In this document: positions 18,313 through 45,502 of the stretch, piece after piece
Numbering within the stretch: the stretch's first letter is position 1
Layout of the letters: every line of letters begins with the position of its first letter
Assembly (NCBI RefSeq): GCF_963678195.1
Contig: NZ_OY782759.1
Coordinates: forward strand, 3,224,001 to 3,288,000
Reading direction: 5' to 3'
Length of the DNA: 64,000 bases
DNA from: an uncultured Hyphomonas sp.
GTDB taxonomy: Bacteria; Pseudomonadota; Alphaproteobacteria; Caulobacterales; Hyphomonadaceae
Notes under the pieces: model-generated
Told to the model about the DNA's origin: nothing
Database searches by the model: none
The model's input: only the letters and a program-made list of their open reading frames with translations
Position numbers and translations under genes: made by a program

Positions 18313-19575
18313 ATGAAGCCGGGCGGAAAGCGGATCGCCATTCTCGGCGCAGGTCCAGCTGGCCTGACGATCGCTCGACTCCTGATGGAGCAGAGCGATC
18401 ACTCCGTCACCCTATACGAGAAATCCCACCGCGTCGGCGGGAAATCCCTGAGCGTACGTCAGGGCGAGGATCTGATCGAATTCGGCACCTGCTACACAAT
18501 CATGTCCCACCGGCGCGTCATGAAGTGGATGCGCGAACAGGGCATCACCATCCAGCAGATCGTGCCGCACAAGATCGATGGCGTGCCGGCCCGGGATTTT
18601 TTCAATTCCGGGCCCGGTGCCCCGCTGGCTGTTCAGGGCATCTCCTATGTCCGGGCCCGCCGCAAACTGCTGAAGGCACTCGAGTCCGATACACCGCCGC
18701 AGAAAGCCCTTGAGGAAGCCGCGACCCCGACCGTCGACTGGCTGCGCGCCCGCAAGCTCGGCAAGATCGAGAAGATGATGATGCGCACGGTCACAGGCAT
18801 GGGCTATGGCGACCTCAAGACTGTACCGATCGTTCATGCCATGCGGTGGGTCGACATGGACCTCATTCTGTCCGGCACGCTGAACAAGATCTATATGCCG
18901 GTCGAAGGCTGGGGCGAGTTCTGGGAACGCCTGGCAAAGCCCATGGATGTCCGCCTTGAAACCCATGTCCGTCACATAGACCGGTCCGGAGACCAGCACC
19001 TGGTCGTGCTGGATGACGGAACCGAGGCAAAATTCGACGCCCTGATCTGCGCGATGCCGGTCGACAGGTTCTCTGCCCTGCTGGAACCCACCGAAGCAGA
19101 GCGCATTGTCGGCGATGCGATCCACTGGGGCGGCTATGCCACCACATTGATTTCATCCGAGGACTGGTTCCAGGAGCAAATCGAATACTATAGCGAAACC
19201 TGCCTGCCGGGTGTGGAGCCGGGCCTGATGATGTCGGCCCGGCGCGAAGGCTATGATGCGGGTCTCGGCGGCCACCTCTACATCGCCAACCAGCTGCCGG
19301 GCGAGTATACCGGGCCGGAACTGATCGAAATCCTGCGCGAGGAAGTGACCCGGCGCGGCGGCAGCATCAACGCCGTAATCCAGCAGGAAATCTGGGAATA
19401 TTTCCCCGAATACGATCCGGGCGCGATTCGGAAAGGGCTGATCGCGCGCATGCGCCAGATGCAGGGCGAACGGCAAACCTGGTATACAGGCGCAACTTTC
19501 TCTCATGAGTCAGTTGCCAATATTTGCATTCACAATGAAGCGCTCGTACCCGACATGCTGAAAGCACTCGGGTGA
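18313..19575 (+). CDS. FAD-dependent amine-oxidase-like oxidoreductase
   Basis: A 420-residue flavoprotein with the dinucleotide motif 'IAILGAGPAGLTIARLLME' at its start, followed by 'YEKSHRVGGKSLSV', the standard second half of the GxGxxG...E...GG fingerprint of amine oxidases and protoporphyrinogen-oxidase relatives. It lacks a signal peptide. The substrate is not evident. The next gene, an asparagine-synthase-type amidotransferase, begins 30 bases later on the same strand, so the two probably form an operon and may act on the same small molecule. Confidence 0.75.
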   Translation: MKPGGKRIAILGAGPAGLTIARLLMEQSDHSVTLYEKSHRVGGKSLSVRQGEDLIEFGTCYTIMSHRRVMKWMREQGITIQQIVPHKIDGVPARDFFNSGPGAPLAVQGISYVRARRKLLKALESDTPPQKALEEAATPTVDWLRARKLGKIEKMMMRTVTGMGYGDLKTVPIVHAMRWVDMDLILSGTLNKIYMPVEGWGEFWERLAKPMDVRLETHVRHIDRSGDQHLVVLDDGTEAKFDALICAMPVDRFSALLEPTEAERIVGDAIHWGGYATTLISSEDWFQEQIEYYSETCLPGVEPGLMMSARREGYDAGLGGHLYIANQLPGEYTGPELIEILREEVTRRGGSINAVIQQEIWEYFPEYDPGAIRKGLIARMRQMQGERQTWYTGATFSHESVANICIHNEALVPDMLKALG

Positions 19576-19605
19576 GACGCGCTCGGAAATCACGGAGATA
19601 ATGCC

Positions 19606-21528: not shown

Positions 21529-21650
21529 ACAAAGCCTTGCCGGCGGGGCGCAAGTTTCACTCCCCACCCAAGGCCGGCAGAAACCAAGATCGGTTACCCC
21601 TGAACCTGAAGTCCGGGAATGCCCCGGCAGGATTGAGTCTGGGGTCCACC

Positions 21651-22934
21651 GTGTCTATTGCCCACCTGCCGCTTTCGGCGATCATTTCTGTCACCGCCGC
21701 GCTGTTTGCGCTGGCCGCATGGCGCTATCGCAGCACGCTTCTGCGTATCCGGCTCGCCCCGACGCTCTTCTCCGGCGCGCGCCAGGACTGGACCTTCAGC
21801 CACATCGCCGAGATTTTCCCTACGGTCGAAATCCCGGCTGCGACGCGCCGCACCCCTTTCCCGGAAGCGGCCTTCCAGGACCTGCCGGAGACATTCGATT
21901 ACGAAGGCCAGAGCTGGAATACAGACACCTTCCTCGAAGACACAGACACCGCCGCCATGCTTGTCCTGAAGGACGGCGAAATCATCCACGAGACCTATGC
22001 CGGCGCCGGTGGACGAACACAGGACTGGCTGTCCTGGTCGGTTGCGAAGAGCTTCGTATCTGCCCTCGTCGGCATCGCCATCGAGGAAGGCCATATCCAC
22101 TCGATCTACGATCCGGTGACGGACCATGTGCCTGCGCTGAAAGGCTCGGCCTATGACGGCGTCACGATCAAACAGGTGCTGCAGATGTGCTCCGGCGCAT
22201 CCTGGAACGAGGATTACAGCGACTGGAAATCCGACATCAATCGCTTCGCCCGCACCTTTGCGCTCGGCGGCTCACTGACCGATTTTGCGCGCTCGCTGGC
22301 CCCGGCGCGCAAGCCCGGCATGTACCGGCTCTACAACTCCATCGACACTCAGGTGCTCGGCATGCTGGTGGCGGCGTCCACCGGAAAGTCGCTGGCGGCC
22401 TACATGCAGGAGAAGCTTTGGGAGCCACTCGGCGCCGAAAGCCCGGCGCGCTGGATTGTCGACAAGGATGGCGTTGAGATGGCCTTCGGTGGCCTGACGG
22501 CTACGGCGCGCGACTATGCCAAGCTGGGCGAGCTGTACCGCAATCGCGGCAACTGGCATGGGCGTCAGATCGTGCCGGAAGCCTGGGTCGACAAATCCCT
22601 GTCGCCCGACATGCCACACCTGATGCCCGGCGGCTTTGCCTTGCCGGATGCTCCGTCAGGCTACGGCCAGTCGCTCGGCTACGGGTTCCAGTGGTGGGTG
22701 CTCAGCACCGCGCCGCTCGAGTTCTGCGCCATGGGTGTCTACAACGAGTTTATCTATGTCGATCCCGGCCGGGGTGTCACCGTCGTGAAACTCTCCTCCA
22801 ACCGCGACTATGGCGTGAAGCCGGATGAAGCGCACGCCAAGGAACTGAAAACAATTGAGTTCCTGCGGGCAGTTGCGCGCGATGTGGCGGACGTTGTGCC
22901 GGAAGCTGAGAAGCGGACGGGAACTACGGGATAA
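21651..22934 (+). CDS. Membrane-anchored class C beta-lactamase-like hydrolase
   Basis: About 427 residues with a single hydrophobic segment at the N-terminus ('LPLSAIISVTAALFALAAW'), which anchors the enzyme with its catalytic part probably in the periplasm. The nucleophile motif is S-V-A-K at residues 130-133 in 'WLSWSVAKSFVSALVGIA', followed by 'YNSIDTQVLGMLVAA' (Y-N-S second motif). The family resembles 6-aminohexanoate-dimer hydrolase and related amidases/esterases. The start is uncertain: GTG 21651 gives a normal anchor, and a TTG at 21537 would add 38 unlikely residues. It follows asnB on the same strand. Confidence 0.75.
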   Translation: MSIAHLPLSAIISVTAALFALAAWRYRSTLLRIRLAPTLFSGARQDWTFSHIAEIFPTVEIPAATRRTPFPEAAFQDLPETFDYEGQSWNTDTFLEDTDTAAMLVLKDGEIIHETYAGAGGRTQDWLSWSVAKSFVSALVGIAIEEGHIHSIYDPVTDHVPALKGSAYDGVTIKQVLQMCSGASWNEDYSDWKSDINRFARTFALGGSLTDFARSLAPARKPGMYRLYNSIDTQVLGMLVAASTGKSLAAYMQEKLWEPLGAESPARWIVDKDGVEMAFGGLTATARDYAKLGELYRNRGNWHGRQIVPEAWVDKSLSPDMPHLMPGGFALPDAPSGYGQSLGYGFQWWVLSTAPLEFCAMGVYNEFIYVDPGRGVTVVKLSSNRDYGVKPDEAHAKELKTIEFLRAVARDVADVVPEAEKRTGTTG

Positions 22935-23097: not shown

Positions 23098-23406
23098 TCA
23101 CTCGCTTTCCGGAACGTAGATCATGCGCCCGTCTGGAAGGCGATACGCGACACCGGCCTTGACCCCTTCGCCCTCTCCGATTTCGCCACTACTTTCGTAA
23201 CGGGTCAGCTCTTCGCCTTGTTTGATCGTCATGCGCATGTCGGCTTCGCCGGGGTTCTCGATGACGATGACGTTTTCATTCCGGAAGGGATTTAGCGGAT
23301 TCTGAACGAGCAGGATCATCAGAATTCCGATGATCACGACAAACAAATCGACAAGATTGACGACAGAGAGGATGGGGTCGTCTTCGTCCTCTTCCAGGAA
23401 CCTCAC
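23098..23406 (-). CDS. DUF2149 protein, TolR/ExbD-like partner
   Basis: A 102-residue protein with one N-terminal transmembrane helix ('LVDLFVVIIGILMILLV') and a small periplasmic domain. The pattern, an acidic start 'EEDEDDPILSVVNLVDLF' then the helix, fits DUF2149, which accompanies CobN-like and ExbB-like genes. It is analogous in layout to ExbD/TolR, whose helix carries an aspartate; here 'NLVDLF' places an aspartate at the start of the helix. The GTG start overlaps the stop of the ExbB-like gene (GTGA), so the two are translated together. It is the last gene of the operon and ends 58 bases from the tRNA fragment. Confidence 0.8.
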   Translation of the reverse strand: MRFLEEDEDDPILSVVNLVDLFVVIIGILMILLVQNPLNPFRNENVIVIENPGEADMRMTIKQGEELTRYESSGEIGEGEGVKAGVAYRLPDGRMIYVPESE

Positions 23407-23885
23407 GAAACCACCTCCGCGCCAGTCTCGATCACGCGCAACTCTTCAAGCAGCCAACGACGGCGAATATTGAGAACGAAAAAGGCCAGGCTTGCAGCGA
23501 TCAGCGCCAGCGTCACGCCGGAGAATGCGACGACCAGATTGCTCGCCATCTCAGCAGACTCTCCGGACGTAAGCGCCATCAATGCCGGTCCCATGGGGAT
23601 AAGCGTTGCAACGAGCCCCAGCAAAGGCGCCACGCGGGACACCAGGCGTAGCGGTTCCAGCCGCTTCATGATCCAGAGTTCCAGATCGTCGCTATCTGCG
23701 CCGGTCTTCCGGTAGTATTGCGTCAGCGCGCCCTGTTTACGACCGGAATAGCGTTGCACGAGTTCCATCAGGAAACGTCCCAAGGTCAGGAGCGAATACG
23801 CGAGAGACACAAGAATCGCCGTCAGTGCCGGCAGGAGGAAAACGGCTGAGACTTCATAAAGTATCGTCTCGAAATCGAAAATCAT
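23403..23885 (-). CDS. MotA/TolQ/ExbB-family proton channel
   Basis: A 160-residue inner-membrane protein with three hydrophobic segments (about residues 12-35, 85-108 and 115-137), the layout of ExbB/TolQ. The 'VSRVAPLLGLVATLIPMGPAL' segment is the diagnostic TolQ/ExbB signature at the start of TM2. It should form a proton-conducting stator with the DUF2149 protein. There is no tonB gene here, and it follows the CobN-like gene by 17 bases, so its likely client is the CobN-like protein rather than the TonB system of the cell. Confidence 0.82.
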   Translation of the reverse strand: MIFDFETILYEVSAVFLLPALTAILVSLAYSLLTLGRFLMELVQRYSGRKQGALTQYYRKTGADSDDLELWIMKRLEPLRLVSRVAPLLGLVATLIPMGPALMALTSGESAEMASNLVVAFSGVTLALIAASLAFFVLNIRRRWLLEELRVIETGAEVVS

Positions 23886-23902
23886 CAGTATTGCCCTTTA
23901 TT

Positions 23903-26900
23903 TCAGGTCCATTGACGCGACGTGCGGAGTTGGAGCAGCGCACCCGCAAGAATTATGAGCAGGAGCCCAGCGATCGAAGTCAGGCGCAGCCAGTCCGGCC
24001 GCACGTCGCCGGGGGACAGGACTTCATTCATGACCTGTCCCTGAATGGTCTGGGACGCTGCAGCTGCAGTATCGGCCGCAGGTGCCCCCTGCCCATTCCC
24101 AAGACCAAACCCGGCTGCCATATCCTCAATGTATTCGACGGTCGTCTGAGCGCCTGCATCCGCCCCGGCCTGTTCGGTCAGCTCCTGCCAGCGCTGAGCA
24201 AGCTCTTTACGCGTCTGCTCGCTTGCATCCCAGTATCCCTTACGGATGGCTTCCATCATACGCTCAATGATCTGAGCCTGCGCTGTTGGGTTCTGTTCTT
24301 CGAACCACTCATTGAGGCCAAGATCCCGGGCATCCATGACATAGGTATCATGCATCGCCTGCCACTGATCGGCACGCACCATTGACTCGTCAGTCACCTG
24401 CCAACCGAAAAGGTTATCTGTCACCCTCAGCATTTCGACGGTTCCGGCGTACCCCTCATCCATCATCGCCGAAATCCATTGCGGGTTCTGGTAACGCGCG
24501 CGCAGCTCATCCGAGAGGAACTTGCTAGCCTGAACCATTTTCGGCTTGGCGCGCCGCAAATCCGAAATATAAAGCGCCGGACTTTCTCCGTTGACGGATT
24601 TCACAGCCGCAGACAGTCCACCGAGGTATTCAAACGGGTGATCCGTCGACAAGACGCCGTGTACGTTGGAGGACCGTGCCAGGATCGCCGCATCGACACC
24701 CGTCAGCTGCTTCTCGAACAAGCCGAAGCTCGCAACAGACTGGCCCCAGTCAGACGTCCCGTAGGCAAAGGATTGGCTTGCCAGATATGTCTGCGCGATG
24801 ATGGCATCATCTTCCCAATTGGTGGAATCGAGCGCGGCATCCGGAACACCCGACCCATAATCACCGGGCGCATTCGAAAAGATTCTTATCGACGCCAGCC
24901 TGTCTGCGGTTCCGGCGTCCGTTCCTGCGGAGAGGAGCGCGTCTCTCACCCGGCGTGTACCGGCATAGACTGCATTCCCGGGCTCGTTCTGTTTGGACAA
25001 TTCATCGATCGCCTCTGAATAAAGTCGCATAAGCCCATCAAACTGGTCCCGGTAGACACTGGTCGCCTGAATGACGACATCAACGCGTGGCCGCCCCAGT
25101 TCGGCCGCCGGAATGATTTCGAGCTTTGTGACACGCCCGCCCCGGCCCCAGACCGGACGAACACCCAAAGCATGCATGATCTGCGCTTCGGTAATCCCCA
25201 GGGTCCGGATTGCATCGGACGAGAAAAGCGAGAAAGCCAGCTTGTCGGGCGCCTGGCCATCATGGTCTGATTTGTAGGCGTCTATCAGCCCCGTGAACGC
25301 CTCCTCACCCGCCTTGTAGGCCGAGGGCGTCGGGATCTTGTCCGGCTCAAATGCAAACAGGTTACAGCCGCTGGACGCTTGCGGATTGCGCACCGGATCC
25401 CCACCCGGGCCGGCTTTCGTGAAGCCGCCATCCAGAGCGTGCAACAGGGCTTCAAGCTCTTGCGGGTCAGCCAGGTGCTGGTCGTAAGCCCGGGCGCGTT
25501 CGATCTGCTCACGCATCGCTGCGTCGGCAATACCCGAAACGTCCTCCCCCCCGCGCAGAAAGCGTTCGAGAAACTGGTACGGTTTACTTTCCGGCAGCTT
25601 CTCCGTGTCGGTTGCGAACATCTCAGCCTGGTCGATCCCAAGCAACGCATAATATGGCTCGCCCAATTGCTGCATGACCGTCATCAGCCTGTGCTCCGGA
25701 GAGGCGGCGAGGCCGAACGTATGCAAGCCCAACGGCGTCGCTGTCTGAGCCAGTTCGTGGAGGTGATCGTGCAGGATCGGCAGGAAGGTCGAAAAGTCGC
25801 TTCTTACGTCTTCCTCTGTCCACAGCAGATCTTTTTGCAGGTTTGCCTCTATCACGGCGTCGGCAAGACGTGCATCTGTTTCATCGCGGACAGCGCCTTC
25901 ATCCAGCTGCTCGCGCTCATGAATCAGGGCGTGAATGTCCCGCAGCTCATCATAGAATCCGGACGGCGCGAAGGGCGGGGTCTGGTGACTGATTGTAACG
26001 GCCCGCCCCCGGCGAATTGCCTGAATCGCCTCCGCGACATTGTCCTGAATATAGGGATACACGACCGGAACATTTCCGAGCGTCAGCATCGGATAGTCAT
26101 AAGCCCACAAGCCCCGGTCCTTTCCGGGGGTCCACTCCTGTGTACCATGTGTTCCCAGATGGATGATCGCACTCGCGTCGAAGGCCTTCTGCACCATCAG
26201 GTAAGTTGCCAGAAACAAGTGTCCCGGCGGCACTTTGACATCATGATAGCTCTCGCCGACCTGATCGGCCCGTGGTGGCTGCGGCAGGAACAGCAGCTTC
26301 CCAAACGTCACTGACGGGATGACGAAAACCTTCTGCCCATTGATCGTTCGCACCGCCCAGTGGGATTCCGGCTCGCCCCACTTGTCAAAAACCGGCTGGG
26401 TCACTTCCTGTGGAAGCGTGTCGAGCCAGGCCTTGTAATCCGACACGGGGAATGCCTGCGCCAACCCGTTCGCCAGCAGGTCGTCCAGACGGTCATGATG
26501 ATAATACCCGCCCAGCATCGACTGGCCTGCCTGCAGGATGTCATCCTCAGTCAGTTCGGGAACATCATAGCCTGCCTGCCGCAACGCTGCGCCGATCTGC
26601 TCAACGCTTGCCGGAACATTCAGATTGGACGCCGACATGTTCCGCTCCCCCTGGGGCGTATTCCAGAAGAACAGGGCAAGCTTCCGGTCCGCCTGATCGG
26701 AATGGCGCAGCCGTGCAACACTTGTCGCCTTGCCAATGAGCAAATCGATCTGTTCGGGAATCGGGACCGGTTCTCCATTCTCAACCCCGGAGACTACGAT
26801 CGGGTCCCCCATCCCCCAGGATTCCGGCGTCGCCATCAGGACCGCCGTCATGGCAGGTTCCACGCCCTGCGCCGCCTTGCGCCATTCCGCCGGCGTCATG

Positions 26901-27763
26901 GAGCGATTGCCCAGCAGTAAGACGGCCGGCACGTCCAGCTCTGCGAGTTCGGCCTTGCGCTGCTCGCCATTCTGCATGTGCGTATAGCTTGCAAGCAGAT
27001 CGACATCAGCCGGGCCGAGCATTTCCGGGATACCCGTCTCCCCCATACTGTCGAACCAGAACAGGATTGGCATGACGCCAGCCGACTCTGCCTGATGGAC
27101 GATCTTGTCCAGTACAGCCGTCTGAACGCCGGAGATGTAGGTCGAGGAAATAATGACCGCCAGACGGGGCGCATCTGCTGGCCACCTGTCCCGCCCCCAC
27201 GCTTCATAAGAGCTGACATCCGTAAAAAAATCGGGGGCATCCGGATGATAGATGGCACTTTCAGGCATGGGGATGGGCGCCGGGATACGGCTCGTGTCAC
27301 GGCCCGAATTCCAGGCGGCGATATAGGTCAGGAAATTCCGGAAGTTCCGTTCACCACCCGCCTCATAATAGGCACTCAACGTCTCGAAGACGGCGGGGTC
27401 CAGATTACCCGAGCGCGCTGGCCGACCGCCTGATCCCACGGACATCCAGGGAACGCCAGCCGCGTTGAGCTGCCCCATAACACCTTCAATCAGCTGAGCG
27501 GCACGTCCACGCAGTGGCGCGTCTATGACGACCAGATCGTAGTCAGCCCAGTTCCCGGGTCCACCCTGCTCAAGATAATTGTGCGTGACCGTAACGTCAG
27601 CGTCTTTTCCCCATCCCGCAATCCTTACGAGCTTGGACGGAAGCACAAAATCGCTGGCAACAATATGAATGCGGGCATCCCGCTCTGGCTGTTCATCAGC
27701 TGCCGCGCTGCCAAGGGCACACGCGACGACAATGGTCACCACCGCCAGGATCGTTCGGAACAT
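23903..27763 (-). CDS. Secreted, membrane-anchored CobN-like chelatase
   Basis: A 1286-residue homologue of the large CobN/ChlH subunit of cobalt and magnesium chelatases. Family patterns visible include 'IHLGTHGTQEWTPGK', 'HGVLSTDHPFEYLGGL' and 'GVRPVWGRGGRV'. Unlike biosynthetic CobN it begins with a signal peptide ('ILAVVTIVVACALGSAAADE') and ends with one transmembrane helix ('IAGLLLIILAGALLQL') after an alanine/glutamine-rich linker, so the body should face the periplasm. HmuS of Bacteroidetes and the CobN homologue of the zinc-responsive PA1922-PA1925 locus of Pseudomonas are known relatives in similar operons. No CobS/CobT or ChlI/ChlD ATPase is encoded nearby. ATG 27763 has a GGAG site; it starts 14 bases after the receptor gene. 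Confidence 0.85.
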   Translation of the reverse strand: MFRTILAVVTIVVACALGSAAADEQPERDARIHIVASDFVLPSKLVRIAGWGKDADVTVTHNYLEQGGPGNWADYDLVVIDAPLRGRAAQLIEGVMGQLNAAGVPWMSVGSGGRPARSGNLDPAVFETLSAYYEAGGERNFRNFLTYIAAWNSGRDTSRIPAPIPMPESAIYHPDAPDFFTDVSSYEAWGRDRWPADAPRLAVIISSTYISGVQTAVLDKIVHQAESAGVMPILFWFDSMGETGIPEMLGPADVDLLASYTHMQNGEQRKAELAELDVPAVLLLGNRSMTPAEWRKAAQGVEPAMTAVLMATPESWGMGDPIVVSGVENGEPVPIPEQIDLLIGKATSVARLRHSDQADRKLALFFWNTPQGERNMSASNLNVPASVEQIGAALRQAGYDVPELTEDDILQAGQSMLGGYYHHDRLDDLLANGLAQAFPVSDYKAWLDTLPQEVTQPVFDKWGEPESHWAVRTINGQKVFVIPSVTFGKLLFLPQPPRADQVGESYHDVKVPPGHLFLATYLMVQKAFDASAIIHLGTHGTQEWTPGKDRGLWAYDYPMLTLGNVPVVYPYIQDNVAEAIQAIRRGRAVTISHQTPPFAPSGFYDELRDIHALIHEREQLDEGAVRDETDARLADAVIEANLQKDLLWTEEDVRSDFSTFLPILHDHLHELAQTATPLGLHTFGLAASPEHRLMTVMQQLGEPYYALLGIDQAEMFATDTEKLPESKPYQFLERFLRGGEDVSGIADAAMREQIERARAYDQHLADPQELEALLHALDGGFTKAGPGGDPVRNPQASSGCNLFAFEPDKIPTPSAYKAGEEAFTGLIDAYKSDHDGQAPDKLAFSLFSSDAIRTLGITEAQIMHALGVRPVWGRGGRVTKLEIIPAAELGRPRVDVVIQATSVYRDQFDGLMRLYSEAIDELSKQNEPGNAVYAGTRRVRDALLSAGTDAGTADRLASIRIFSNAPGDYGSGVPDAALDSTNWEDDAIIAQTYLASQSFAYGTSDWGQSVASFGLFEKQLTGVDAAILARSSNVHGVLSTDHPFEYLGGLSAAVKSVNGESPALYISDLRRAKPKMVQASKFLSDELRARYQNPQWISAMMDEGYAGTVEMLRVTDNLFGWQVTDESMVRADQWQAMHDTYVMDARDLGLNEWFEEQNPTAQAQIIERMMEAIRKGYWDASEQTRKELAQRWQELTEQAGADAGAQTTVEYIEDMAAGFGLGNGQGAPAADTAAAASQTIQGQVMNEVLSPGDVRPDWLRLTSIAGLLLIILAGALLQLRTSRQWT

Positions 27764-27777
27764 ATCCCGCTCCACCC

Positions 27778-29727
27778 TCAGAATGCGTAGGAAAGCGACA
27801 GGCGATAGACACGGCCTGGTTCGGCAAACGTGTAGAGGTCAGACCTGTCAGCCAGACGTTCGTCTGTCAGGTTGTCGATCCCGGCATTCAGGCGCACATG
27901 CGATGTCAGAGGCCACACCGCATCAAGATGCAGGAGCGTGTAGTCGGGGATGCTGACGCCCGGCGAATCCAGCTGATCACCGGTATACTCAACACGCAGG
28001 CGAACCTCCGCCCCTTCCCTCGGAGACCATGACACGGCGGCATTCGCCTGATGCTCAGGACGTTCCGCAATCTGATCCCCTGTCGCCTTATCTTCAGTAT
28101 CGAGATAGGTGTAGTTGGCATTCACCCCGAACCCGGCAGGCAGGTCCATCTGCCCGGACAATTCCAGCCCGTTGACCTCCGCCTCTTCCAGATTGGTATA
28201 GTAGCGGACCTCCGCCCCCCTGATGCCGCAGTCGGACACACACTGGGTCTGAATCAGATTCTCCAACTCGTTGTGGAACACACCGGCATGCACGGTCCAG
28301 GTATCGGCAATATAGTCTACGCTTGCCTCGAAGGTCTTCGTCGTTTCAGGTTTCAGATCCGGATTGCCATAGGCCCAGAAACGGCCGCCAGCTGCGAGCA
28401 CCTGGAAGTCCTCAGACAAGTTGGTCAGGCTGGGCGACTTGAAGCCTTCGCCGTAGCCTCCTTTTACAACGATCCGGTCCGTCGGCTGGAACACGCCGTA
28501 GAGGCGCGGGCTGGCTTCCCAGCCATATGCGTCATGGTGATCACCACGCAGTCCAGCGACCAGTTTGAACGTATCGGTGACTTCGATCTCGTCCTGGATG
28601 AAGATGGCGCCCTGTTCTGCTTCCGAAGTTCCATCCGGCGACGCGACATCATCCTCCAGCTCCTCGCGGCGAATTTCACCGCCAAATGTAACGGAGTGGG
28701 ACTCCGCCAGCTTGAAGGCGGTCAGTCCGCTGAGCACTGTGTCTTCCAACCCCTGGTCCCGGGTCGGGGTTTGACCATTCGTCCGGAAGTTCTCCCGACT
28801 CGCGGAACTCTGATACAGGTCCACCTGCGTACGTCCCCAGGACCAGTTGCCTTTGTGCCCCAGAACGAATTGCTCGCGCTCACCTTCATCGCGATACTCA
28901 TAATCCACCGGAGACCGACCGGACGTGCGCGTGTCGCGCCAGCGCTCGTCATCGCTTCGGGTGTAGATAAAATCGATGCGTTGCTGGTCATCCGGCGTCC
29001 AGACAAGGTTGAATCTTCCAGTGGATGTTTTCCGCCCTTCGATGTCTGAAATGGCCGGGTCATCCGGATTGGGCAGATCATTCCGCTCCAGCACATCACC
29101 AACGAAGGTCGCCCCAAGCTTGCCTTCGACAATCGGAACCGAAAGGAAGACGCTGCCATTTACGCTTTCACCGCCGTCCCCTGATTCCGGCGCCGTGCCG
29201 CCGAGGGACAGCTCGCCCATGAATTCTTCTGCCGGGGATTTGGAGATGATGTTGACGACACCGCCAAGCGCATCCGACCCATAAAGCGACGACATCGGAC
29301 CCCGAACAACTTCGACCTGTTCAATCGCCGCTGTAGGCAGCCAGCCGAGTTCCAGGTCGGAGTGCGAAATCACGCCATTGGTAGCGCTCACCCTGCGACC
29401 ATCGAGAAGGTAAAGTGTATACTCTTCCGGCATTCCGCGGAGACTGATCCCCCTTCTGGTCATGCCGATGCCGGTAACCTGCACACCGGGCTCACCGGCC
29501 AGGGCGTCAGTCAAATCGGTCGAGCCGCGCAATTCCAGCTCTGCATTATCTACCACCGATACGCTCGCCGGTGCGGTTAGAAGAGCCTGCTCGCTAGCTG
29601 TTGCGGTAACAACCACCGTGTCCAGTTCCCGCTCAAGGTCATCGGCAAATGCCGGCGCCGCTACGCTGAGCGCGCCAAGGACCACCGACCCCGACAACCG
29701 ACGGAACGAGAGAATTTGCTGAGTCAT
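27778..29727 (-). CDS. TonB-dependent outer-membrane receptor
   Basis: A 649-residue receptor: signal peptide ending at 'APAFADD', a TonB-box-like 'DTVVVTA', the plug domain ('LTDALAGEPGVQVTGIGMTRRGISLRG', 'VEVVRGPMSSLYGSDALGGVVNIIS') and a 22-strand-type barrel ending in the aromatic C-terminus 'YRLSLSYAF'. The plug is like BtuB and colicin-I receptor homologues. It imports a metal complex with energy from TonB. No cobalamin riboswitch precedes it on the coding strand; instead two Zur-like palindromes do. The ATG at 29727 is preferred because the signal peptide then starts at once; an upstream frame would add 36 residues. Confidence 0.92.
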   Translation of the reverse strand: MTQQILSFRRLSGSVVLGALSVAAPAFADDLERELDTVVVTATASEQALLTAPASVSVVDNAELELRGSTDLTDALAGEPGVQVTGIGMTRRGISLRGMPEEYTLYLLDGRRVSATNGVISHSDLELGWLPTAAIEQVEVVRGPMSSLYGSDALGGVVNIISKSPAEEFMGELSLGGTAPESGDGGESVNGSVFLSVPIVEGKLGATFVGDVLERNDLPNPDDPAISDIEGRKTSTGRFNLVWTPDDQQRIDFIYTRSDDERWRDTRTSGRSPVDYEYRDEGEREQFVLGHKGNWSWGRTQVDLYQSSASRENFRTNGQTPTRDQGLEDTVLSGLTAFKLAESHSVTFGGEIRREELEDDVASPDGTSEAEQGAIFIQDEIEVTDTFKLVAGLRGDHHDAYGWEASPRLYGVFQPTDRIVVKGGYGEGFKSPSLTNLSEDFQVLAAGGRFWAYGNPDLKPETTKTFEASVDYIADTWTVHAGVFHNELENLIQTQCVSDCGIRGAEVRYYTNLEEAEVNGLELSGQMDLPAGFGVNANYTYLDTEDKATGDQIAERPEHQANAAVSWSPREGAEVRLRVEYTGDQLDSPGVSIPDYTLLHLDAVWPLTSHVRLNAGIDNLTDERLADRSDLYTFAEPGRVYRLSLSYAF

Positions 29728-29966: not shown

Positions 29967-29985
29967 AATGTTATATTATACCGTT
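29967..29985. promoter_or_regulatory. Zur-like palindrome, receptor-distal
   Basis: AATGTTATATTATACCGTT is a 19-bp imperfect palindrome, with 7 of 9 pairs matching around 29976, close to the TGTTATA-type boxes of alphaproteobacterial Zur proteins. It lies 240 bases upstream of the receptor start. The rest of 29762-30122 shows no gene; it would be a long leader if transcription starts here. Confidence 0.5.
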
Positions 29986-30122
29986 ACTGTTTCTGGTGAG
30001 ATTCTGCGCACTTTTTGTTCAACAAAGGGATACGCACTCAAACACTCGGTTGCGTTTTCAGCCCCGACCGCAGAGCTAGATTCAAGAACAATTGTTCGCA
30101 GGAAAGTTTATCATGGTACCGA

Positions 30123-30818
30123 CTATTCACTGGCAACCCAACCACACCAGGTGAACGCCCTGTAGAACTGCTCGACGTTCAAGAAACCCGCCGATTTGAG
30201 GATTTGTTCATCCTGTTCCGGGGTCAGGAGCTCGACACTCCGGGATACAGCATCGCGCGCCTGGCTTGCCATTTCAGGATCAACGCCAGACGCGACCGCG
30301 AACGCTTCATAACGGGAAAGCCATTTGTCGCGTACGTCAGGTGCCTGAGGAAAACTGGAATGGGCCACAACGAAAGGTGCGCCAGGCTTGAGGCGCTTGT
30401 GGATTTCCGTGACAGTTCTCAAACGCTCCTGCGGGTCAAGAAAATGCAAAGTGAGCAGACATACCGCCCCATCGAAGGCCTCCTCTGGCGCTGCATCTAT
30501 GTACCCTTCGATGAAGTCCACACGCTCAGCGGCGTCGCCTAACGTGCTGCTGGCGAGCTCGAGCATTGGACGTGCCGGGTCGACACCGACAAATGTCCAG
30601 TCAGGCTGGCTTTCCGCCATTGCACGAAGCTCCAGGCCTCCGCCCGCTCCAAGCACCAGAATTCGGCCATCAGCCGGGACCCGCTCGGCCAGAAGGATCG
30701 TCACCATCCTGTGCAGGTCAGCAAAACCAGGCGTGAAGCGCGGCGGACCGGATTGGTAGTTCGAAACCGCCGCGGGGTCCTTGAAAGATTTCAGGAAGGG
30801 GTTTTCATCGGCTTGCAT
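30123..30818 (-). CDS. Class I SAM-dependent methyltransferase
   Basis: A 231-residue cytoplasmic methyltransferase. Motif I is 'RILVLGAGGGLELRAMA', the acidic residue ending strand 2 is in 'FVGVDPARPML', and 'VDFIEGYIDAAPEEAFDGAVCLLTLHFL' covers the next strands. A good AAGGAG site precedes the ATG. It follows DUF1826 by 33 bases in the same transcript. The acceptor is unknown; small-molecule methylation is the usual role of this group. Its repeated presence within zinc-linked operons would need checking, but here it is clearly inside the metal island. Confidence 0.75.
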   Translation of the reverse strand: MQADENPFLKSFKDPAAVSNYQSGPPRFTPGFADLHRMVTILLAERVPADGRILVLGAGGGLELRAMAESQPDWTFVGVDPARPMLELASSTLGDAAERVDFIEGYIDAAPEEAFDGAVCLLTLHFLDPQERLRTVTEIHKRLKPGAPFVVAHSSFPQAPDVRDKWLSRYEAFAVASGVDPEMASQARDAVSRSVELLTPEQDEQILKSAGFLNVEQFYRAFTWCGWVASE

Positions 30819-30851
30819 GTGTTGTGTCTCCTTCCGGAACGACTTTTCCGG

Positions 30852-31463
30852 TCAACATATTCCTGGACGTTCAATATCGAACACCATCACGAAACGGGCG
30901 CTTCCGGTACCTTCGATTGGCGGCGAGCGGTGAATGATATGTCCCGCCTTCCCACAACGCTTCCCCAGAAACATACCCACTTCAAACGTGGACATTTCCT
31001 GGATCGCCGGCTCACCGCTCCCCTGATGCTCATCGAACCACTGGGTTCCGCGGCCGAAATAAGTCGTGATCAGACGAATATCCGTCTTGTCCTTGTGGAA
31101 CTTTCGACAGGCGTCATCGGTGACATATTCCAGACGTAAAGTGTACTCCGCCGCATGACCGGAACTGGCAGACAGAATGGCCTTTATGTCCGTCATGATG
31201 CGATCCACAACCAAGGGAGACCAATTCCGCCCCGCAAGGAACGCCTCAGCCGCTGATAAAATGGAGGCTTCGTCGCCATCGACCCGGAAATCGACAAATC
31301 CGGAATAATCCAGACCGCAAAACGCATCCCTTATCTCAGGATCCACTGTTCGCTCCCAAAGAGCCAGTTCCACCGCTTCACGAAAGCCCAATTCGATGAG
31401 CGAACCGAAACTATCGCAGGCGTCGACAGTCCGGGTCTGCAACATGACCGGCGACGCAGCCAT
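30852..31463 (-). CDS. DUF1826 family protein
   Basis: A 203-residue soluble protein matching DUF1826, with the family segment 'TLRLEYVTDDACRKFHKD' followed by 'RLITTYFGRGTQWF' and, near the end, 'HRSPPIEGTGSARFVMVFD'. Conserved Cys and His residues in 'DDACRKFHKD' and 'HIIHRSPP' make metal binding likely. The family is often encoded next to COG0523 GTPases of zinc homeostasis. The ATG at 31463 shares a base with the stop of the upstream GTPase gene (TAATG) and has GGAGAAGG upstream; the alternative at 31478 has a poorer site. Its molecular role is unknown. Confidence 0.8.
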   Translation of the reverse strand: MAASPVMLQTRTVDACDSFGSLIELGFREAVELALWERTVDPEIRDAFCGLDYSGFVDFRVDGDEASILSAAEAFLAGRNWSPLVVDRIMTDIKAILSASSGHAAEYTLRLEYVTDDACRKFHKDKTDIRLITTYFGRGTQWFDEHQGSGEPAIQEMSTFEVGMFLGKRCGKAGHIIHRSPPIEGTGSARFVMVFDIERPGIC

Positions 31464-32668
31464 TATTGCCTTCTCCATTTGGGAAACGGGTCGCTCAAAT
31501 CTTCACGCGCAGTGATTGCCCCTCTTTGGTCCATACAGGCGTCGGTCAGGCACGCATCCAACCGGGCGGTAATCGACACAGGATCCATGTCGATACCGAT
31601 GAACACAATTTCCTGCCGGCGGTCACCATAGACCGGGTCCCAGACGGAAGAGAGATAGTCCTCAAGGCCGGAACGATCCGGCCATTGCTCTTGTGGGACA
31701 GCCGACCACCAGGTCCCTACCCCGCTATGCCTGACCAAAGCGCCAGCCTGGCTGACTTCGCCAAGCCATTCCGGCCGGGTGGCCAGCCAGAAGAACCCCT
31801 TTGCCCGGACGACATTCGGCCAGGGCTCATTGAAGAACTCAAACAGTTTTGCCGGATCGAAAGGCTGGCGCCCACGATAGACGAAGCTTTCGATGCCATA
31901 CTCTTCCGTTTCGGGAACGTGGTCCTCAAAACCGTACAGTTCCTTCGCCCACAGCGGATGATCGTGCGCCTTTTCAAAATCAAATCGTCCGGTGCCCATA
32001 ACCTTGTCGAGTGGAACATTTCCAAATTCAGATTCCACGATATCGGCATCGGGATTGAGGGATCGTACCAGCTTCCGCACCGTTTCGAGGTCATCCAGCG
32101 AGATGATATCTGTCTTGTTCAGAATAATGACGTCAGCAAACTCGATCTGGTCAACCAGAAGCTGGACCAGCGGGCGGTCGTCGTCATCGCCGAGGCTCTC
32201 GCCACGATCCACAAGGAAGTCCGAACTGCTGTAGTCTTTCAAAAGATGCGCAGCGTCTACAACGGTCACCATTGTGTCGATCTTCGCAACGTCCCCGAGA
32301 GAAAAGCCTCGCTCATCCCGGAAATCGAAGGTCGCAGCCACCGGCAATGGTTCGGAAATCCCGGTGGACTCGATCAGCAGATAATCGAAACGCCCTTCCG
32401 CAGCGAGGCGCGTGACCTCCTGCAGAAGATCATCTCTCAAAGTGCAGCAGATACAACCATTGCTCATCTCAACGAGCGCTTCATCCGTACGGGAAAGGTT
32501 AGCTCCTCCATCGCGCACAAGCGCGGCGTCGATGTTTACCTCGCTCATATCGTTTACGATGACCGCGACCCGCCGCCCCTCGCGATTGGCAAGCACATGA
32601 TTTAAAAGTGTCGTCTTACCGGCGCCGAGAAAACCGGAAAGAACTGTTACCGGAAGTGTCTGGGACAC
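31463..32668 (-). CDS. COG0523 (CobW/ZigA-type) metallochaperone GTPase
   Basis: A 401-residue G3E GTPase. Walker A is G-F-L-G-A-G-K (residues 12-18), the metal-binding C-I-C-C motif is at residues 72-75, 'VVDAAHLL' and 'ILNKTDIIS' follow, and the C-terminal CobW domain is present. These proteins hand zinc or another metal to client enzymes under starvation. The GTG at 32668 has a perfect AGGAGG six bases upstream and sets the P-loop at the expected place. The start of the transcript is probably at the merC-like gene 57 bases upstream. The metal is inferred to be zinc from the neighbours; cobalt cannot be excluded from this gene alone. Confidence 0.88.
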
Positions 32669-32724
32669 TTGCACCCTCCTGCTTGAGATATCGTAGTAGA
32701 AAACGCTTCGCCCGCCTCTGGGGC

Positions 32725-33120
32725 TTAGAAGTCGCGGCCGGACCCGCCATGCCTGTGACGCATCCATCGCCATATGTGCGCCAGCGCAAGCATCAGGGCC
32801 CCGGTCACAGTGAGCGGTGTTTCCAGTTCGTGCAGCGGTTCAACGAACGCCGCGGCAATCAGCAAGCTCAAACCGGCAACAGCCAACCCGACAAAGACTT
32901 TCCAATCTGGTGCCGATAATCGCCTGACAATGGCGAACCCCGACAGGGGCAATGCCAAGGCGACAAATAGCTTGTGGACCCACTCAGCTTCAGACCACGC
33001 CCCGGCCAGGGGAAGAAAAGCTGCAAAGAGCGGCAAGGCAAGGCAGTGCACAACGCACAGCCCGGATAGCGTTACCGCAGAGAAATCTATGACCGCTGCC
33101 CCGGAAGAACGAGCCGCCAT
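32725..33120 (-). CDS. MerC-domain membrane protein
   Basis: A 131-residue protein with four hydrophobic segments and, in the first, '[17 protein letters not shown]', the paired cysteines of the MerC/DUF family that bind metal ions. It ends in a His/Arg-rich tail. In mercury resistance MerC imports Hg2+, but in this setting, divergent from zur and upstream of the GTPase, zinc transport or sensing is more likely. ATG 33120 has a GGGGGAG site; an upstream GTG has none. It is the first gene of the minus-strand operon. Confidence 0.75.
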
Positions 33121-33168
33121 CAGGCGCTCCCCCACTGCTCGACTGCGGGCGAAAATCGTTGCGGAGCA

Positions 33169-33204
33169 TTCATTACATTACCTCAACTTGCGTTATGTTA
33201 TTAC
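33169..33204. promoter_or_regulatory. Pair of Zur-like boxes between zur and merC-like
   Basis: Two related palindromes lie 23 bases apart in the divergent promoter region: TTCAT-TAC-ATTAC at 33169-33181 and GTTAT-GTT-ATTAC at 33192-33204. Both share the ATTAC half-site with the box before the receptor gene. The position fits autorepression of zur and repression of the divergent operon. Confidence 0.5.
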
Positions 33205-33251
33205 ATTCTGATATATGCCCCATAACCGCTTTACAAGAGGCTGTTTCAACC

Positions 33252-33728
33252 ATGATCGAAAATCGGCAGGACGCCCCTTCCCCTTCTTCGACGGAAGCCA
33301 CGATTCTTGCTGCGGAACGGCATGCGGAACAGGAAGGCGTGACCTTCACCTCCATTCGCCGATACGTGTATGCCATTCTGCTCGAAGCAGACGAACCGCT
33401 AGGCGCCTATGACATTGCCGGTCGTCTTGATGGGATCGGGTGCACGAAACCGACCACTGCTTATCGCGCCCTGGAATGGCTTGAGGGTCTGGGGCTGATC
33501 CGGAAGATCAGATCCGTCTCGAAATATATCGCGTTAAAATCCGGTCCTCAGGACGCACCTCTTGCATTTGTCATATGTCAGGAATGCGGAACGACGGAGC
33601 AGATTCCGCTCGGCCCGGAAAGCCATGAGCTGCTGTCTGTCTTCGAAGCAAACGGATTTCAGGCCGTCAATCCGACAATCGAAGTTTCCGGGCGCTGCAT
33701 GGCACATCATCGGCTTGCGGATGAATGA
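33252..33728 (+). CDS. zur: Fur-family regulator, probable Zur
   Basis: A 158-residue Fur-family protein with an N-terminal winged helix ('RRYVYAILLEADEPLGAYDIAGRL' and 'KPTTAYRALEWLEGLGLIRKI') and a C-terminal dimerisation domain with the structural zinc motif C-Q-E-C in 'FVICQECGTTE' and a later 'SGRCMAHH'. The second Cys pair of classical Zur is reduced to one cysteine plus histidines. The wing and 'KYIALKSGP' segment resemble Zur rather than Fur. It would repress the island when zinc is plentiful. The ATG at 33252 has GAGG 11 bases upstream. It is likely co-transcribed with the next two genes. Confidence 0.85.
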   Translation: MIENRQDAPSPSSTEATILAAERHAEQEGVTFTSIRRYVYAILLEADEPLGAYDIAGRLDGIGCTKPTTAYRALEWLEGLGLIRKIRSVSKYIALKSGPQDAPLAFVICQECGTTEQIPLGPESHELLSVFEANGFQAVNPTIEVSGRCMAHHRLADE

Positions 33729-33817
33729 TCAATTTACCGCCTCCGCCATAACCGGGCGAGCGCCCATCCCCTGAAACCTGCACCTGTTCCCTTCCCCCGA
33801 CATTCCAGGAGCCGTCA

Positions 33818-34390
33818 ATGAAGTCATTTAATCTTATCGGAGCGTGCATTCTGAGCACTGCGAGCATTCTCCTGCCAGCTTCAGCCAGCGCGCAGTCTCT
33901 CGATGCTCACGTCCATGGCGAAGCCAATATGGCAATTGTCATTGATGGACAGCACCTGTCCGCATCCCTGATGAGTGCGATGTACAATATCACAGGCTTC
34001 GAACATGCACCCGAAACAGAAGAACAGCGCGAAGTCCTGCAAACGGCTAAATCGCTTCTCGAAGATGGTACCCAGCTCTTCAGGTTTAATTCTGAAGCAG
34101 AATGCTTTCTGACCTCCTCCCACCATAACTTGTCATCAACAGAAGACCGTCATGATACGAACGAAGACAAGCCGGAAGCGGACGGCGAACATCATCACAA
34201 TCATCGGGATCTGGAAGCAGACTACGAATTCACCTGCAAAAAGCCTTCAAAACTCTCATCTGTCAGAGTGGGCCTCTTCGATCACTTCAAGAACCTTCAG
34301 AAAGTGAATGTCGTAACGCTTACGGGCGGCCAGCAATCGGCCGCCGAGCTGACGCCGAAGCGGGAGACGCTGTCGCTGTCCGGGTCATGA
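33818..34390 (+). CDS. ZrgA-like periplasmic zinc-binding protein (DUF2796)
   Basis: A 190-residue exported protein: the signal peptide ends around 'PASASAQ', followed by 'SLDAHVHGEANMAIVIDG', the DUF2796 signature. A flexible insert rich in His, Asp and Glu ('EADGEHHHNHRD') is typical of zinc carriers. In Vibrio (ZrgA) and Pseudomonas (PA4063) such proteins serve a zinc-repressed ABC importer. Here the expected ATPase and permease genes are missing and the DUF3299 gene follows directly, overlapping by 4 bases (ATGA). Confidence 0.85.
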   Translation: MKSFNLIGACILSTASILLPASASAQSLDAHVHGEANMAIVIDGQHLSASLMSAMYNITGFEHAPETEEQREVLQTAKSLLEDGTQLFRFNSEAECFLTSSHHNLSSTEDRHDTNEDKPEADGEHHHNHRDLEADYEFTCKKPSKLSSVRVGLFDHFKNLQKVNVVTLTGGQQSAAELTPKRETLSLSGS

Positions 34391-35139
34391 GGCACAAACT
34401 CAGGACAGCCGGGCCTCTGGCACTTCTCTTGATGGCCATGGCCGGCTGCAACCCGCCACAAAGCAGTCAGTCGGCTTCCGATACAACCATAGACCGGCAA
34501 CCGCCGCCAATGCCGGAAAACGCCGTGACAGTGGACTTTGACACTGCGGCCGACGAAGGAACGAACAGCGTCAGCACGGAACAAGACAAAACGGAACCTC
34601 AGCAATCTTCAGCCGCATGGGGCCTGGAGCCTGGCGAGGCAATCCCGCTCAAATGGGAAGACCTGATGCCAGAAGGCGCCGAGGAAGAACTGGCGCGTCA
34701 GGAAGCCGAATTTTTCAGGATGCTGGAGCAGCGTTACGCCGCGAGCGCAACCTCCCTCGCCGAGGCCCAGACTTTCGATGAAATCCAGGAAGGATCCACG
34801 CTCGACTACATGCCTCAACTCGGGACATTCGATGTTGTTGACGATCTTGACGGCCAGCTGATCCGTATCCCGGGCTATGTCGTACCGTTTGACTTCAATG
34901 AAAATCGGCGTCAGGGCGAATTCCTTTTCGTCCCCTATATGGGCGCCTGCATCCACACACCTCCGCCGCCACCAAACCAGATCATCTTCGTTCGTGCAGA
35001 TCCTGCGATCCCGCTCAGGGACATCTGGTCGCCCTATTGGCTTGAGGGCACACTCACGACCGAAGTGACCCATAGCGAACCCGGAGATGCCGCCTATGCG
35101 GTATCCCTGTCCAAACTCGAGGCTTATGAGTATCGCTGA
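34387..35139 (+). CDS. DUF3299 lipoprotein (ZrgE/PA4066-like)
   Basis: A 250-residue lipoprotein with the lipobox M-A-G-C near residue 20, a proline- and serine-rich linker, and the C-terminal DUF3299 domain recognised from 'IRIPGYVVPFDFNENRRQGEFLFVPYMGACIHTPPPPPNQII' (quoted as family landmarks PGYVVPFDF and GACIHTPPPPPNQ). The His and Cys of the latter may bind metal. The homologue sits at the end of the zinc-repressed ABC loci of Vibrio and Pseudomonas; its molecular job is not established. It ends 57 bases before the tRNA-Val 3' end, just inside the island border. Confidence 0.82.
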   Translation: MRHKLRTAGPLALLLMAMAGCNPPQSSQSASDTTIDRQPPPMPENAVTVDFDTAADEGTNSVSTEQDKTEPQQSSAAWGLEPGEAIPLKWEDLMPEGAEEELARQEAEFFRMLEQRYAASATSLAEAQTFDEIQEGSTLDYMPQLGTFDVVDDLDGQLIRIPGYVVPFDFNENRRQGEFLFVPYMGACIHTPPPPPNQIIFVRADPAIPLRDIWSPYWLEGTLTTEVTHSEPGDAAYAVSLSKLEAYEYR

Positions 35140-44943: not shown

Positions 44944-44944
44944 C

Positions 44945-45445: not shown

Positions 45446-45502
45446 TAGAGCAACTCTGCGCTACTTACAAAATTGTAATCTTAAAGAATTCAATTATTGG
45501 GA

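What the first reader, a model, noticed from the sequence alone, without database searches (positions are those of the whole stretch)
23098..29727. Secreted CobN-like chelatase with a private proton channel: a putative metal-stripping uptake machine
Receptor, CobN-like protein, ExbB-like and DUF2149 genes form one tight operon (spacings 14 and 17 bases and a 4-base overlap). The CobN-like protein has a signal peptide and a C-terminal membrane anchor, so its active body is periplasmic, and no CobS/CobT-type ATPase is present to power it. The ExbB-like and DUF2149 pair has no tonB beside it. Known relatives are HmuS-type proteins of haem loci and the zinc-responsive PA1922-PA1925 genes of Pseudomonas. 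I infer that the channel drives the CobN-like protein directly by proton motive force, so that it pulls metal out of an imported complex in the periplasm. Such a pmf-driven dechelatase would be a new mechanism.
Basis: partly seen in the sequence, partly recalled or inferred. Interest (0 to 1): 0.85.

Follow-up and report, generated by a model that had tools for sequence, protein, structure and literature searches.

The report
Proton-motor-coupled periplasmic metal-stripping enzyme (putative)
A zinc-starvation gene set in an alphaproteobacterium encodes a secreted enzyme that probably strips metal from an imported metal complex; comparison across many genomes suggests that a small proton-driven membrane motor, present or lost together with the enzyme's membrane tail, helps it turn over, which would be a new way to power such an enzyme.

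Summary
In detail: TonB-dependent receptor, secreted tail-anchored CobN-like protein, ExbB-like protein and DUF2149 form one operon, beside zur-like, zigA-like cobW, DUF1826, merC and zrgA genes, with two Zur-box-like sites. The closest solved structure is the heme de-chelatase HmuS. That the channel serves the CobN-like protein gains real, though only comparative, support. Of 60 genomes found through the secreted CobN-like protein, 46 have the ExbB-like/DUF2149 pair and all 46 proteins carry a C-terminal linker plus membrane helix; 14 related genomes lack both, while the receptor stays (one loss event). The linker carries a short motif before the helix. Complete exbB-exbD-tonB sets share the locus with the trio in 6 of 154 loci, and Methanosarcina, which has no TonB or ExbD match, has CobN, ExbB-family and DUF2149 matches. 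Published work assigns the pair to the receptor or to heme transport. My refinement: metal removal itself probably needs no proton motive force (helix-less HmuS does 1-2 turnovers in vitro); the motor would reset the enzyme. No contact, energy coupling or substrate is shown. The same trio occurs in heme, nickel, cobalamin and zinc contexts.

The parts
27778..29727 (-). TonB-dependent outer-membrane receptor (plug + barrel), first gene of the operon
23903..27775 (-). secreted CobN-like (HmuS/BtuS-like) protein, 1290 aa from GTG 27775 (ATG at 27763); signal peptide, chelatase body, linker, C-terminal membrane helix
26147..26149 (-). His543, aligned with catalytic His-538 of HmuS (second His of IHxGTHG)
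   Evidence: role of His-538 from PMC12583661
24638..24640 (-). His1046 (with Asp1045 and Glu1049), aligned with the DH..E motif of HmuY-linked proteins, taken as His-1209/Asp-1208/Glu-1212 of HmuS
24029..24046 (-). linker motif IQGQVM, residues 1244-1249, of the conserved [VIA]xGxx[LM] type
23927..23983 (-). C-terminal membrane helix, residues 1265-1283
23403..23885 (-). ExbB-like protein, 160 aa (short MotA/TolQ/ExbB type with LGLxxTxIPxGP motif)
23098..23406 (-). DUF2149 protein, 102 aa: one membrane helix with NLxD acid, small part predicted all-beta
29970..29982 (.). Zur-box-like palindrome upstream of the receptor gene
33192..33204 (.). Zur-box-like palindrome between merC and the zur-like gene
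30123..30818 (-). class I methyltransferase of the zinc cluster (P. aeruginosa PA1921 is listed as a methyltransferase too)
30852..31478 (-). DUF1826 protein
31463..32773 (-). COG0523 GTPase, over the NCBIfam cut-off for ZigA zinc metallochaperone (609 bits, cut-off 600)
32725..33135 (-). MerC-family membrane protein
33252..33728 (+). Fur-family regulator: PF01475 22.4 bits (just under the gathering score 23.1); only NCBIfam match is Zur, far below its cut-off
33818..34390 (+). ZrgA-family zinc uptake protein
34387..35139 (+). DUF3299 protein, overlapping zrgA by 4 bases

Best explanation
The operon encodes a zinc-acquisition branch: the receptor imports a zinc complex (probably a tetrapyrrole-like chelate), the CobN-like protein held at the outer face of the inner membrane strips the metal, and the ExbB-like pentamer with a DUF2149 dimer is a proton-driven motor that acts on the CobN-like protein through its membrane helix and the linker motif next to it, much as ExbBD acts on TonB. 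The motor would take the place of the AAA+ ATP motor (ChlID, CobST) of cytosolic class I chelatases and would mainly drive turnover (opening, product release, reset) rather than the demetallation itself. Shown here: anatomy, zinc context, conservation, and that pair and tail are present or absent together. Inferred: physical contact, stoichiometry, energy coupling, which step is driven, and the substrate.
For: (1) CobN-first survey: 60 genomes with the secreted type; pair in 46, with a C-terminal extension of 88-150 residues beyond the body in all 46 fetched proteins (one genome gave two; the window's own makes 47); pair absent in 14, extension only 47-78 residues and no terminal helix in 14 of 14; cytosolic-type CobN 8-42 in 36 examined. 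(2) The 14 form one branch nested among pair-carrying relatives (SH-aLRT 97), so a joint loss; all 14 keep a receptor in the locus. (3) Motif [VIA]xGxx[LM] starting 13-28 residues before the helix in 67 of 76 tails with a clear helix, 4.3 expected from shuffled linkers (the motif was defined on these same sequences). TonB has an ExbD-binding motif in the same kind of place, the D-box (PMC10907165, passages). (4) Complete exbB-exbD-tonB sets share the locus with the trio in 6 of 154 loci examined (L019, L070, L078, L081, L084, L143); TonB confirmed by Pfam in all 6. In L081 and L084 the set directly precedes the cluster's receptor, in L143 it directly follows CobN. (5) Among 14 control genomes Methanosarcina acetivorans has DUF2149, CobN and MotA/ExbB matches but no ExbD or TonB_C match. 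(6) Membrane acid of DUF2149: D in 54 and E in 1 of 55 rows; a Thr of ExbB-like helix 2 kept in 14 of 14 and invariant in 38 rows; its match to the proton-path Thr of ExbB is recalled. (7) Helix-less HmuS stalls after 1-2 turnovers (PMC12583661). (8) Zinc: ZigA, Zur-like, ZrgA, two palindromes; PA1922-PA1925 rise 45-147-fold in a zinc-depleted znuA mutant (PMC4542158, table passage).
Against: No contact or pmf experiment exists, and no complex could be modelled with these tools. The joint loss is one event, not 14. The receptor is also nearly always in the locus (71 of 74 complete loci with CobN), so locus content alone does not choose between partners. Papers assign HmuU/HmuV (this pair) to HmuR import (PMC10100974; PMC12583661) or HmuTUV to heme transport across the inner membrane (PMC13227078); PMC10100974 reports operon patterns with R,T,U,V but no detected HmuS in 981 species and T,U,V alone in 337, at a 30% identity threshold. 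Three of 11 genomes whose pair had no CobN nearby have no CobN match at all (3 MAGs). DUF2149 has no significant fold match (modest model, pLDDT 75, pTM 0.31) and only a 21-column membrane-segment match to ExbD (probability 19%). HmuS chemistry proceeds in vitro without the pair. The 14 species show that the enzyme can be kept without a motor. One pair-carrying member (L026) has neither catalytic His.
Confidence: 0.58

Rival explanations
1. The ExbB-like/DUF2149 pair is an auxiliary ExbB/ExbD that, with a housekeeping TonB, powers the operon's own receptor; the CobN-like protein works alone. This is the published assignment for HmuU/HmuV and PA1924.
For: Stated in PMC10100974, PMC12583661 Figure 1 legend, PMC4542158 and PMC8456098; receptor present in 71 of 74 complete CobN-containing loci.
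Against: Pair lost in 14 species that keep the receptor; complete Ton sets in the same locus as the trio in 6 loci; Methanosarcina control without TonB or ExbD matches; DUF2149 shows no ExbD periplasmic fold match; the loss coincides with loss of the CobN tail, which this rival does not predict.
Confidence: 0.2
2. The pair is a passage across the inner membrane: the CobN-like protein hands the freed ion (or the stripped or whole complex) to the ExbB-like/DUF2149 complex.
For: Tail-mediated docking would look the same; Pro-containing helix 2 (IPMGP/IPLGP) conserved in this family; PMC13227078 supposes that HmuTUV moves heme across the inner membrane.
Against: Loci can carry another inner-membrane transporter: DUF2162 in L143, FecCD-type permeases in 26 of 139 loci; FeoAB imports the iron in Bacteroides (PMC6460266); the conserved acid is that of proton-driven motors.
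Confidence: 0.1
3. The pair only supplies protons locally to the acid-base residues of the CobN-like protein, or is a membrane dock, with no mechanical work.
For: Demetallation consumes protons; in vitro HmuS needs NADH, not ATP (PMC12583661).
Against: The periplasm already supplies protons; a motor-type complex and a long linker are not needed for a dock (inference).
Confidence: 0.08

Closest known systems
HmuS heme de-chelatase with HmuU/HmuV (hmuYRSTUV, Bacteroidota)
   Same: Best solved-structure match (9d26, 428 bits versus 357 for CobN); same trio in HmuY loci; His543/Glu582 and Asp1045/His1046 align with the two catalytic dyads.
   Different: HmuS residues 723-910, presumably holding the Met-rich insertion, face only 24 window residues, and Arg91 stands where HmuS has the heme ligand Met-79 (my reading); no HmuY among the window's neighbours scanned; zinc, not iron, context.
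PA1922-PA1925 of Pseudomonas aeruginosa (Zur-linked operon)
   Same: Receptor, CobN-like, small channel-type protein, unknown protein, a methyltransferase (PA1921) sharing the Zur site, and zinc response (PMC4542158, passages and table).
   Different: Sequence not fetched here; literature calls PA1924 an ExbD homologue and treats the system as free-zinc import.
[quoted passage not shown]
   Same: Exported, membrane-anchored CobN-like proteins proposed for metalloporphyrin salvage (PMC6460266, section 17).
   Different: That section names no channel partner.
TonB/ExbBD and TolA/TolQR force transducers
   Same: Single-helix client with a linker motif beside a proton-driven motor; ExbB-like model resembles ExbB/TolQ.
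   Different: The client here is an enzyme anchored by its C-terminus; motif letters do not fit the D-box pattern given in PMC10907165; DUF2149 does not match the ExbD family.
CobNST and ChlHID class I chelatases
   Same: Same large-subunit family (PF02514).
   Different: Those are cytosolic and ATP-driven (PMC12583661; PMC13227078); this one is secreted and its locus has no AAA+ partner.

Membership tests
HmuS heme de-chelatase | two His-carboxylate dyads in the body (His-538/Glu-577, His-1209/Asp-1208) | tested here: met
   His543, Glu582, His1046, Asp1045 by alignment
HmuS heme de-chelatase | Met-79/His-254 heme site and Met-rich insertion | tested here: not met
   His266 aligns with His-254, but Arg91 with Met-79, and the long HmuS stretch 723-910 has almost no counterpart (my reading; features from PMC12583661)
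HmuS heme de-chelatase | removes iron from heme | not testable with these tools
   no biochemistry
CobN of cobaltochelatase (CobNST) | cytosolic protein in a cobalamin gene set with CobS/CobT | tested here: not met
   signal peptide and tail; no cobalamin genes among the neighbours scanned; CobT homologue only far away. NCBIfam NF004644 nevertheless names it CobN, over its cut-off
MotA/TolQ/ExbB family | Pfam model over cut-off and ExbB/TolQ-like fold | tested here: met
   PF01618 26.1 bits, cut-off 22.9; model pLDDT 91; the ten best Foldseek hits are ExbB or TolQ chains, probability 0.93-1.00, but E 0.015 at best and TM 0.36-0.44
ExbD/TolR family | ExbD profile and periplasmic fold | tested here: not met
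   no PF02472 match at E 1e-3; no significant fold match, on a modest model; only the membrane segment aligns
ExbD/TolR family | membrane acid in a single N-terminal helix | tested here: met
   54 D and 1 E of 55 rows
Zur regulon | Zur operator at the promoter | tested here: inconclusive
   two palindromes with one mismatch, none in 100 shuffles, but the pattern was recalled and chosen after one region had been seen; no binding data
TonB-like client of an ExbB-type motor | direct binding to ExbB/ExbD-type subunits | not testable with these tools
   single-chain prediction only

The most novel reading that the evidence does not exclude
A proton-driven motor of the MotA/TolQ/ExbB superfamily works on an enzyme instead of TonB, TolA or a flagellum: a class I chelatase has exchanged its ATP motor for a pmf motor when it moved to the periplasm, and this one module has been fitted with different receptors and regulators to strip heme iron, zinc, nickel and corrinoid-linked cobalt, in bacteria and methanogens.
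Probability: 0.5. Interest if true: 0.9.

Novelty: new variant of a known kind. Interest (0 to 1): 0.72.

Why it matters
If true, it answers how an energy-demanding chelatase works where there is no ATP, may explain why published helix-less HmuS stalls after 1-2 turnovers, gives DUF2149 a function, adds an enzyme to the clients of proton-driven ExbB-type motors, and corrects a database name ('cobaltochelatase CobN') for a family that works in metal scavenging. It makes one clear experiment available: delete or uncouple the pair in a heme-using gut commensal and measure demetallation apart from import.

Tried and rejected
DUF2149 as an ExbD family member: rejected for the periplasmic part. A channel swap in an alphaproteobacterial MAG (L186): I first noted CobN followed by canonical ExbB/ExbD without TonB; searches show a TonB gene next, so this is a Ton set beside CobN and I withdrew the idea. 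A decayed tail behind the stop codon in L235/L236: the read-through is the next gene. Archaeal loci: no handle to an archaeal genome could be had, so the archaeal point rests on control tallies and on passages of PMC9425974 and PMC10100974; gene adjacency there was not seen by me. Viral contigs: nothing. Rfam was run on 17 sources in all: no riboswitch in the window or in 7 type-A loci. Coevolution analysis was not attempted: too few pairs.

Limits of the counts. Searches scored at most two candidates per genome and at most five, and the match list was cut, so some secreted proteins may be missing. Three doubtful matches (G095, G321, G345) were fetched: no hydrophobic tail is visible. G449 (partial match) was not fetched and is not among the 60. 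For the 14 pair-less genomes ExbB-like was searched genome-wide; DUF2149 only in G174 and otherwise in the locus. Of 99 CobN-like rows, 23 were left out of the motif count because their helix score was 1.6 or less: 15 of these have the motif and 8 do not (4 cytosolic CobN, L179, truncated L056, L032, L114). The 9 of 76 without it are L030, five type-B proteins (L031, L033, L034, L035, L180) and three HmuY-linked ones (L145-L147). The helix score alone does not separate the groups: pair-carrying L036 reaches only 0.95 and pair-less L235/L236 reach 1.04; the length beyond the body does. A few loci are one genome reached twice (L021/L046, L054/L187, L071/L240, L096/L241, L186/L275, judged from equal contig lengths).
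Full report
What is there. The window lies in a 3.67 Mb single-contig genome. The CobN-like protein has a signal peptide and one membrane helix near its end, both read by eye. Its best solved relative is HmuS (9d26, 428 bits), ahead of CobN (357) and ChlH (353). NCBIfam nevertheless calls it cobaltochelatase CobN.

Context is zinc. Upstream are a methyltransferase, DUF1826, a GTPase over the ZigA cut-off, MerC, a Zur-like regulator, ZrgA and DUF3299. A palindrome GTTATRTTATAAC with at most one mismatch occurs twice in the window, before the receptor gene and between merC and the regulator; 100 shuffles gave none. The pattern is recalled and I had already seen one of the regions, so this is supportive, not proof. 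Two further alphaproteobacteria have receptor, CobN-like, ExbB-like and DUF2149 beside the same GTPase and DUF1826 types (L269, L270). In Pseudomonas aeruginosa PA1922-PA1925 rise 45- to 147-fold in a zinc-depleted znuA mutant (PMC4542158, passages and table).

Who belongs with whom. Searching by DUF2149: 17 of 398 genomes, 18 loci; the 17 besides the window all hold ExbB-like and CobN-like genes. Searching by ExbB-like: 80 loci, DUF2149 next to it in 80, a CobN-like frame or part of one in 68. Of the other 12, 11 genomes were checked: 8 have a CobN-family protein, 3 do not, all MAGs. A tail was confirmed for five of the eight (L182, L183, L184, L186, L188); in the other three (L185, L279, L127) the contig ends inside or before the linker. 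The receptor is nearly as faithful: of 125 loci with the pair, 78 are complete around it; 74 of these hold CobN and 71 of the 74 a receptor. So presence alone does not tell the partner.

The discriminating test is to start from the CobN-like protein. A profile of 19 secreted CobN-like proteins (A3) separates full-length matches from cytosolic-type CobN, which scores at most 845 bits and ends before the tail. In 398 genomes of the phylum 19 have the secreted type, 18 of them with the pair (17 by Pfam, G086 on inspection). New ones: 15 of 369 in the class of G255, all with pair and tail; 3 in the phylum of G410 (249 genomes, Campylobacterota by the title of L061) besides that starting genome, all with both; 4 among 385 genomes of the window's class, all with tail, three with the pair adjacent and one (G1238) with the pair on another contig, seen as L080. 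The exception, G174, lacks both. Its family (121 genomes) adds 6 genomes with both and 13 with neither. A genome-wide search with the ExbB-like profile found hits of 1e-45 to 1e-49 in the 6 and nothing better than 1.9e-7 in the 14. In total 46 with both, 14 with neither, none mixed, of 60. Measured without judgement, the stretch beyond the chelatase body is 88-150 residues in 46 pair-carrying proteins, 47-78 in the 14 pair-less ones and 8-42 in 36 cytosolic-type ones. On a tree of the bodies without tails the 14 are one branch (SH-aLRT 97) inside pair-carrying relatives: one joint loss. All 14 keep a receptor in the locus. A channel for the receptor should not vanish with the enzyme's tail and leave the receptor.

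The tail. Between body and helix lies a low-complexity linker with one conserved spot, [VIA]xGxx[LM], typically VxGQKLEK, starting 13 to 28 residues (median 19) before the helix; 67 of 76 clear tails have it, 4.3 expected in shuffles. The motif was defined on the same sequences, so the contrast is somewhat flattered. Type-B proteins and the three HmuY-linked ones do not fit it. Pair-less and cytosolic-type proteins have no helix and no motif there. TonB carries its ExbD-binding D-box next to its membrane helix (PMC10907165, passages); the letters differ, so I claim likeness of position only.

The motor. The ExbB-like model is confident (pLDDT 91, pTM 0.82); its ten best Foldseek hits are ExbB or TolQ chains with probability 0.93-1.00, though E-values do not go below 0.015. 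DUF2149 is predicted as one helix plus five strands with modest confidence, no significant fold match and an ExbD-like membrane segment, whose acid is D in 54 and E in 1 of 55 rows. The host genome has Ton components elsewhere. Complete exbB-exbD-tonB sets share the locus with the trio in 6 of 154 loci (L019, L070, L078, L081, L084, L143), found with two seeds per family, so a lower bound; L186 has such a set beside its CobN-like gene while the pair of that genome is at L080. In L143 the order is receptor, DUF2162, ExbB-like, DUF2149, CobN, exbB, exbD, tonB, second receptor. Among 14 control genomes Methanosarcina acetivorans matches DUF2149, CobN and MotA/ExbB, not ExbD or TonB_C; that archaea lack an outer membrane is general knowledge. 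PMC9425974 lists DUF2149 in methanogens as linked to TolQ (passage), and PMC10100974 lists HmuS and HmuV relatives in Methanomicrobia (table passage).

One module, several metals. Heme: HmuY loci and ChaN-type heme-binding proteins in 16 of 139 loci. Nickel: hyp genes around the Runella locus, with a membrane protein that matches NicO only weakly, below the cut-off, and NikR near the Azospirillum locus. Cobalamin: riboswitches in 6 of 7 type-B loci (one of these pair-less) and two in L143. Zinc: the window, L269, L270. At the second catalytic position His is found in 5 of 19 aligned proteins (window, Azospirillum, three HmuY-linked), Asp in 13, and L026 has neither catalytic His.

Mechanism. 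HmuS data (PMC12583661: passages, and the whole sections on mechanism and superfamily): NADH needed, ATP not, His-538 essential, membrane helices removed, 1-2 turnovers only; the authors name instability, missing cofactors and product inhibition as possible causes. I therefore place the energy input at turnover. A tetrapyrrole-like zinc complex is the natural guess from the family; Zn-coproporphyrin as a zincophore is recalled, not checked.

Novelty. The enzyme activity is known, and so are the neighbours. In the passages I read, the pair is assigned to the receptor (PMC10100974, PMC12583661, PMC4542158, PMC8456098) or HmuTUV to inner-membrane heme transport; the same paper (PMC13227078) says it cannot exclude that HmuT, HmuU and HmuV affect HmuS activity, which comes nearest to the present idea but names no mechanism. 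A study of periplasmic force transducers has no occurrence of CobN, chelatase or DUF2149 (PMC12204202). Searches for CobN-like/HmuS, DUF2149, CobN with ExbB, proton channel and periplasm, HmuU/HmuV/HmuS, BtuS and HmuS with proton motive force listed no paper that, from its listing or the passages read, proposes that the pair drives the CobN-like protein. Only open-licence PubMed Central papers are held, so this is no proof of absence. Of the other papers cited I saw passages, and of PMC6460266 also section 17.

Noticed in passing
L090, L097, L108, L092 (ExbB-like at about 10000): In these Cupriavidus/Ralstonia loci no CobN-like gene lies beside the pair; in L090 a ChaN-type heme-binding protein follows (Pfam), and ChaN-like genes occur in 16 of 139 loci, these four among them. 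In three of the genomes (L182-L184) the CobN-like gene sits next to cobW and a canonical cobN.
   Followed up: partly
L179, L180, L219, L222, L034, L035, L143: Cobalamin riboswitches lie near the receptor-CobN-like genes of the type-B group and of the Trichlorobacter locus, so these members are probably B12- or cobalt-regulated; none was found in L218.
   Followed up: partly
L026:10418-14368 (G193): CobN-like protein with pair and tail but without either catalytic His of the aligned positions; function unclear.
   Followed up: no
G000:C1:139587-140408 (outside the window): CobT-family gene in a genome whose only listed CobN-family match is the secreted one; its role there is unclear.
   Followed up: no
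window 23903-27775: NCBIfam NF004644 names this secreted type 'cobaltochelatase subunit CobN' (1690 bits, cut-off 1248), probably a misnomer.
   Followed up: no
L145:11030-11707 and L147:10949-11662: The protein in HmuT position between CobN-like and ExbB-like in Bacteroidota has no Pfam match at E 1e-3.
   Followed up: no
window 30001-34000: G+C is 0.555-0.561 across the zinc genes, below most of the window, though 42001-46000 is similarly low (0.542-0.567); may point to acquisition.
   Followed up: no
window 34387-35139: DUF3299 protein, lipoprotein-like by eye, overlaps zrgA by 4 bases; perhaps a further zinc-cluster member.
   Followed up: no
window 18313-22934: Amine-oxidase-like flavoprotein, asparagine synthase and beta-lactamase-family (PF00144) hydrolase genes in a row on the plus strand.
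   Followed up: no
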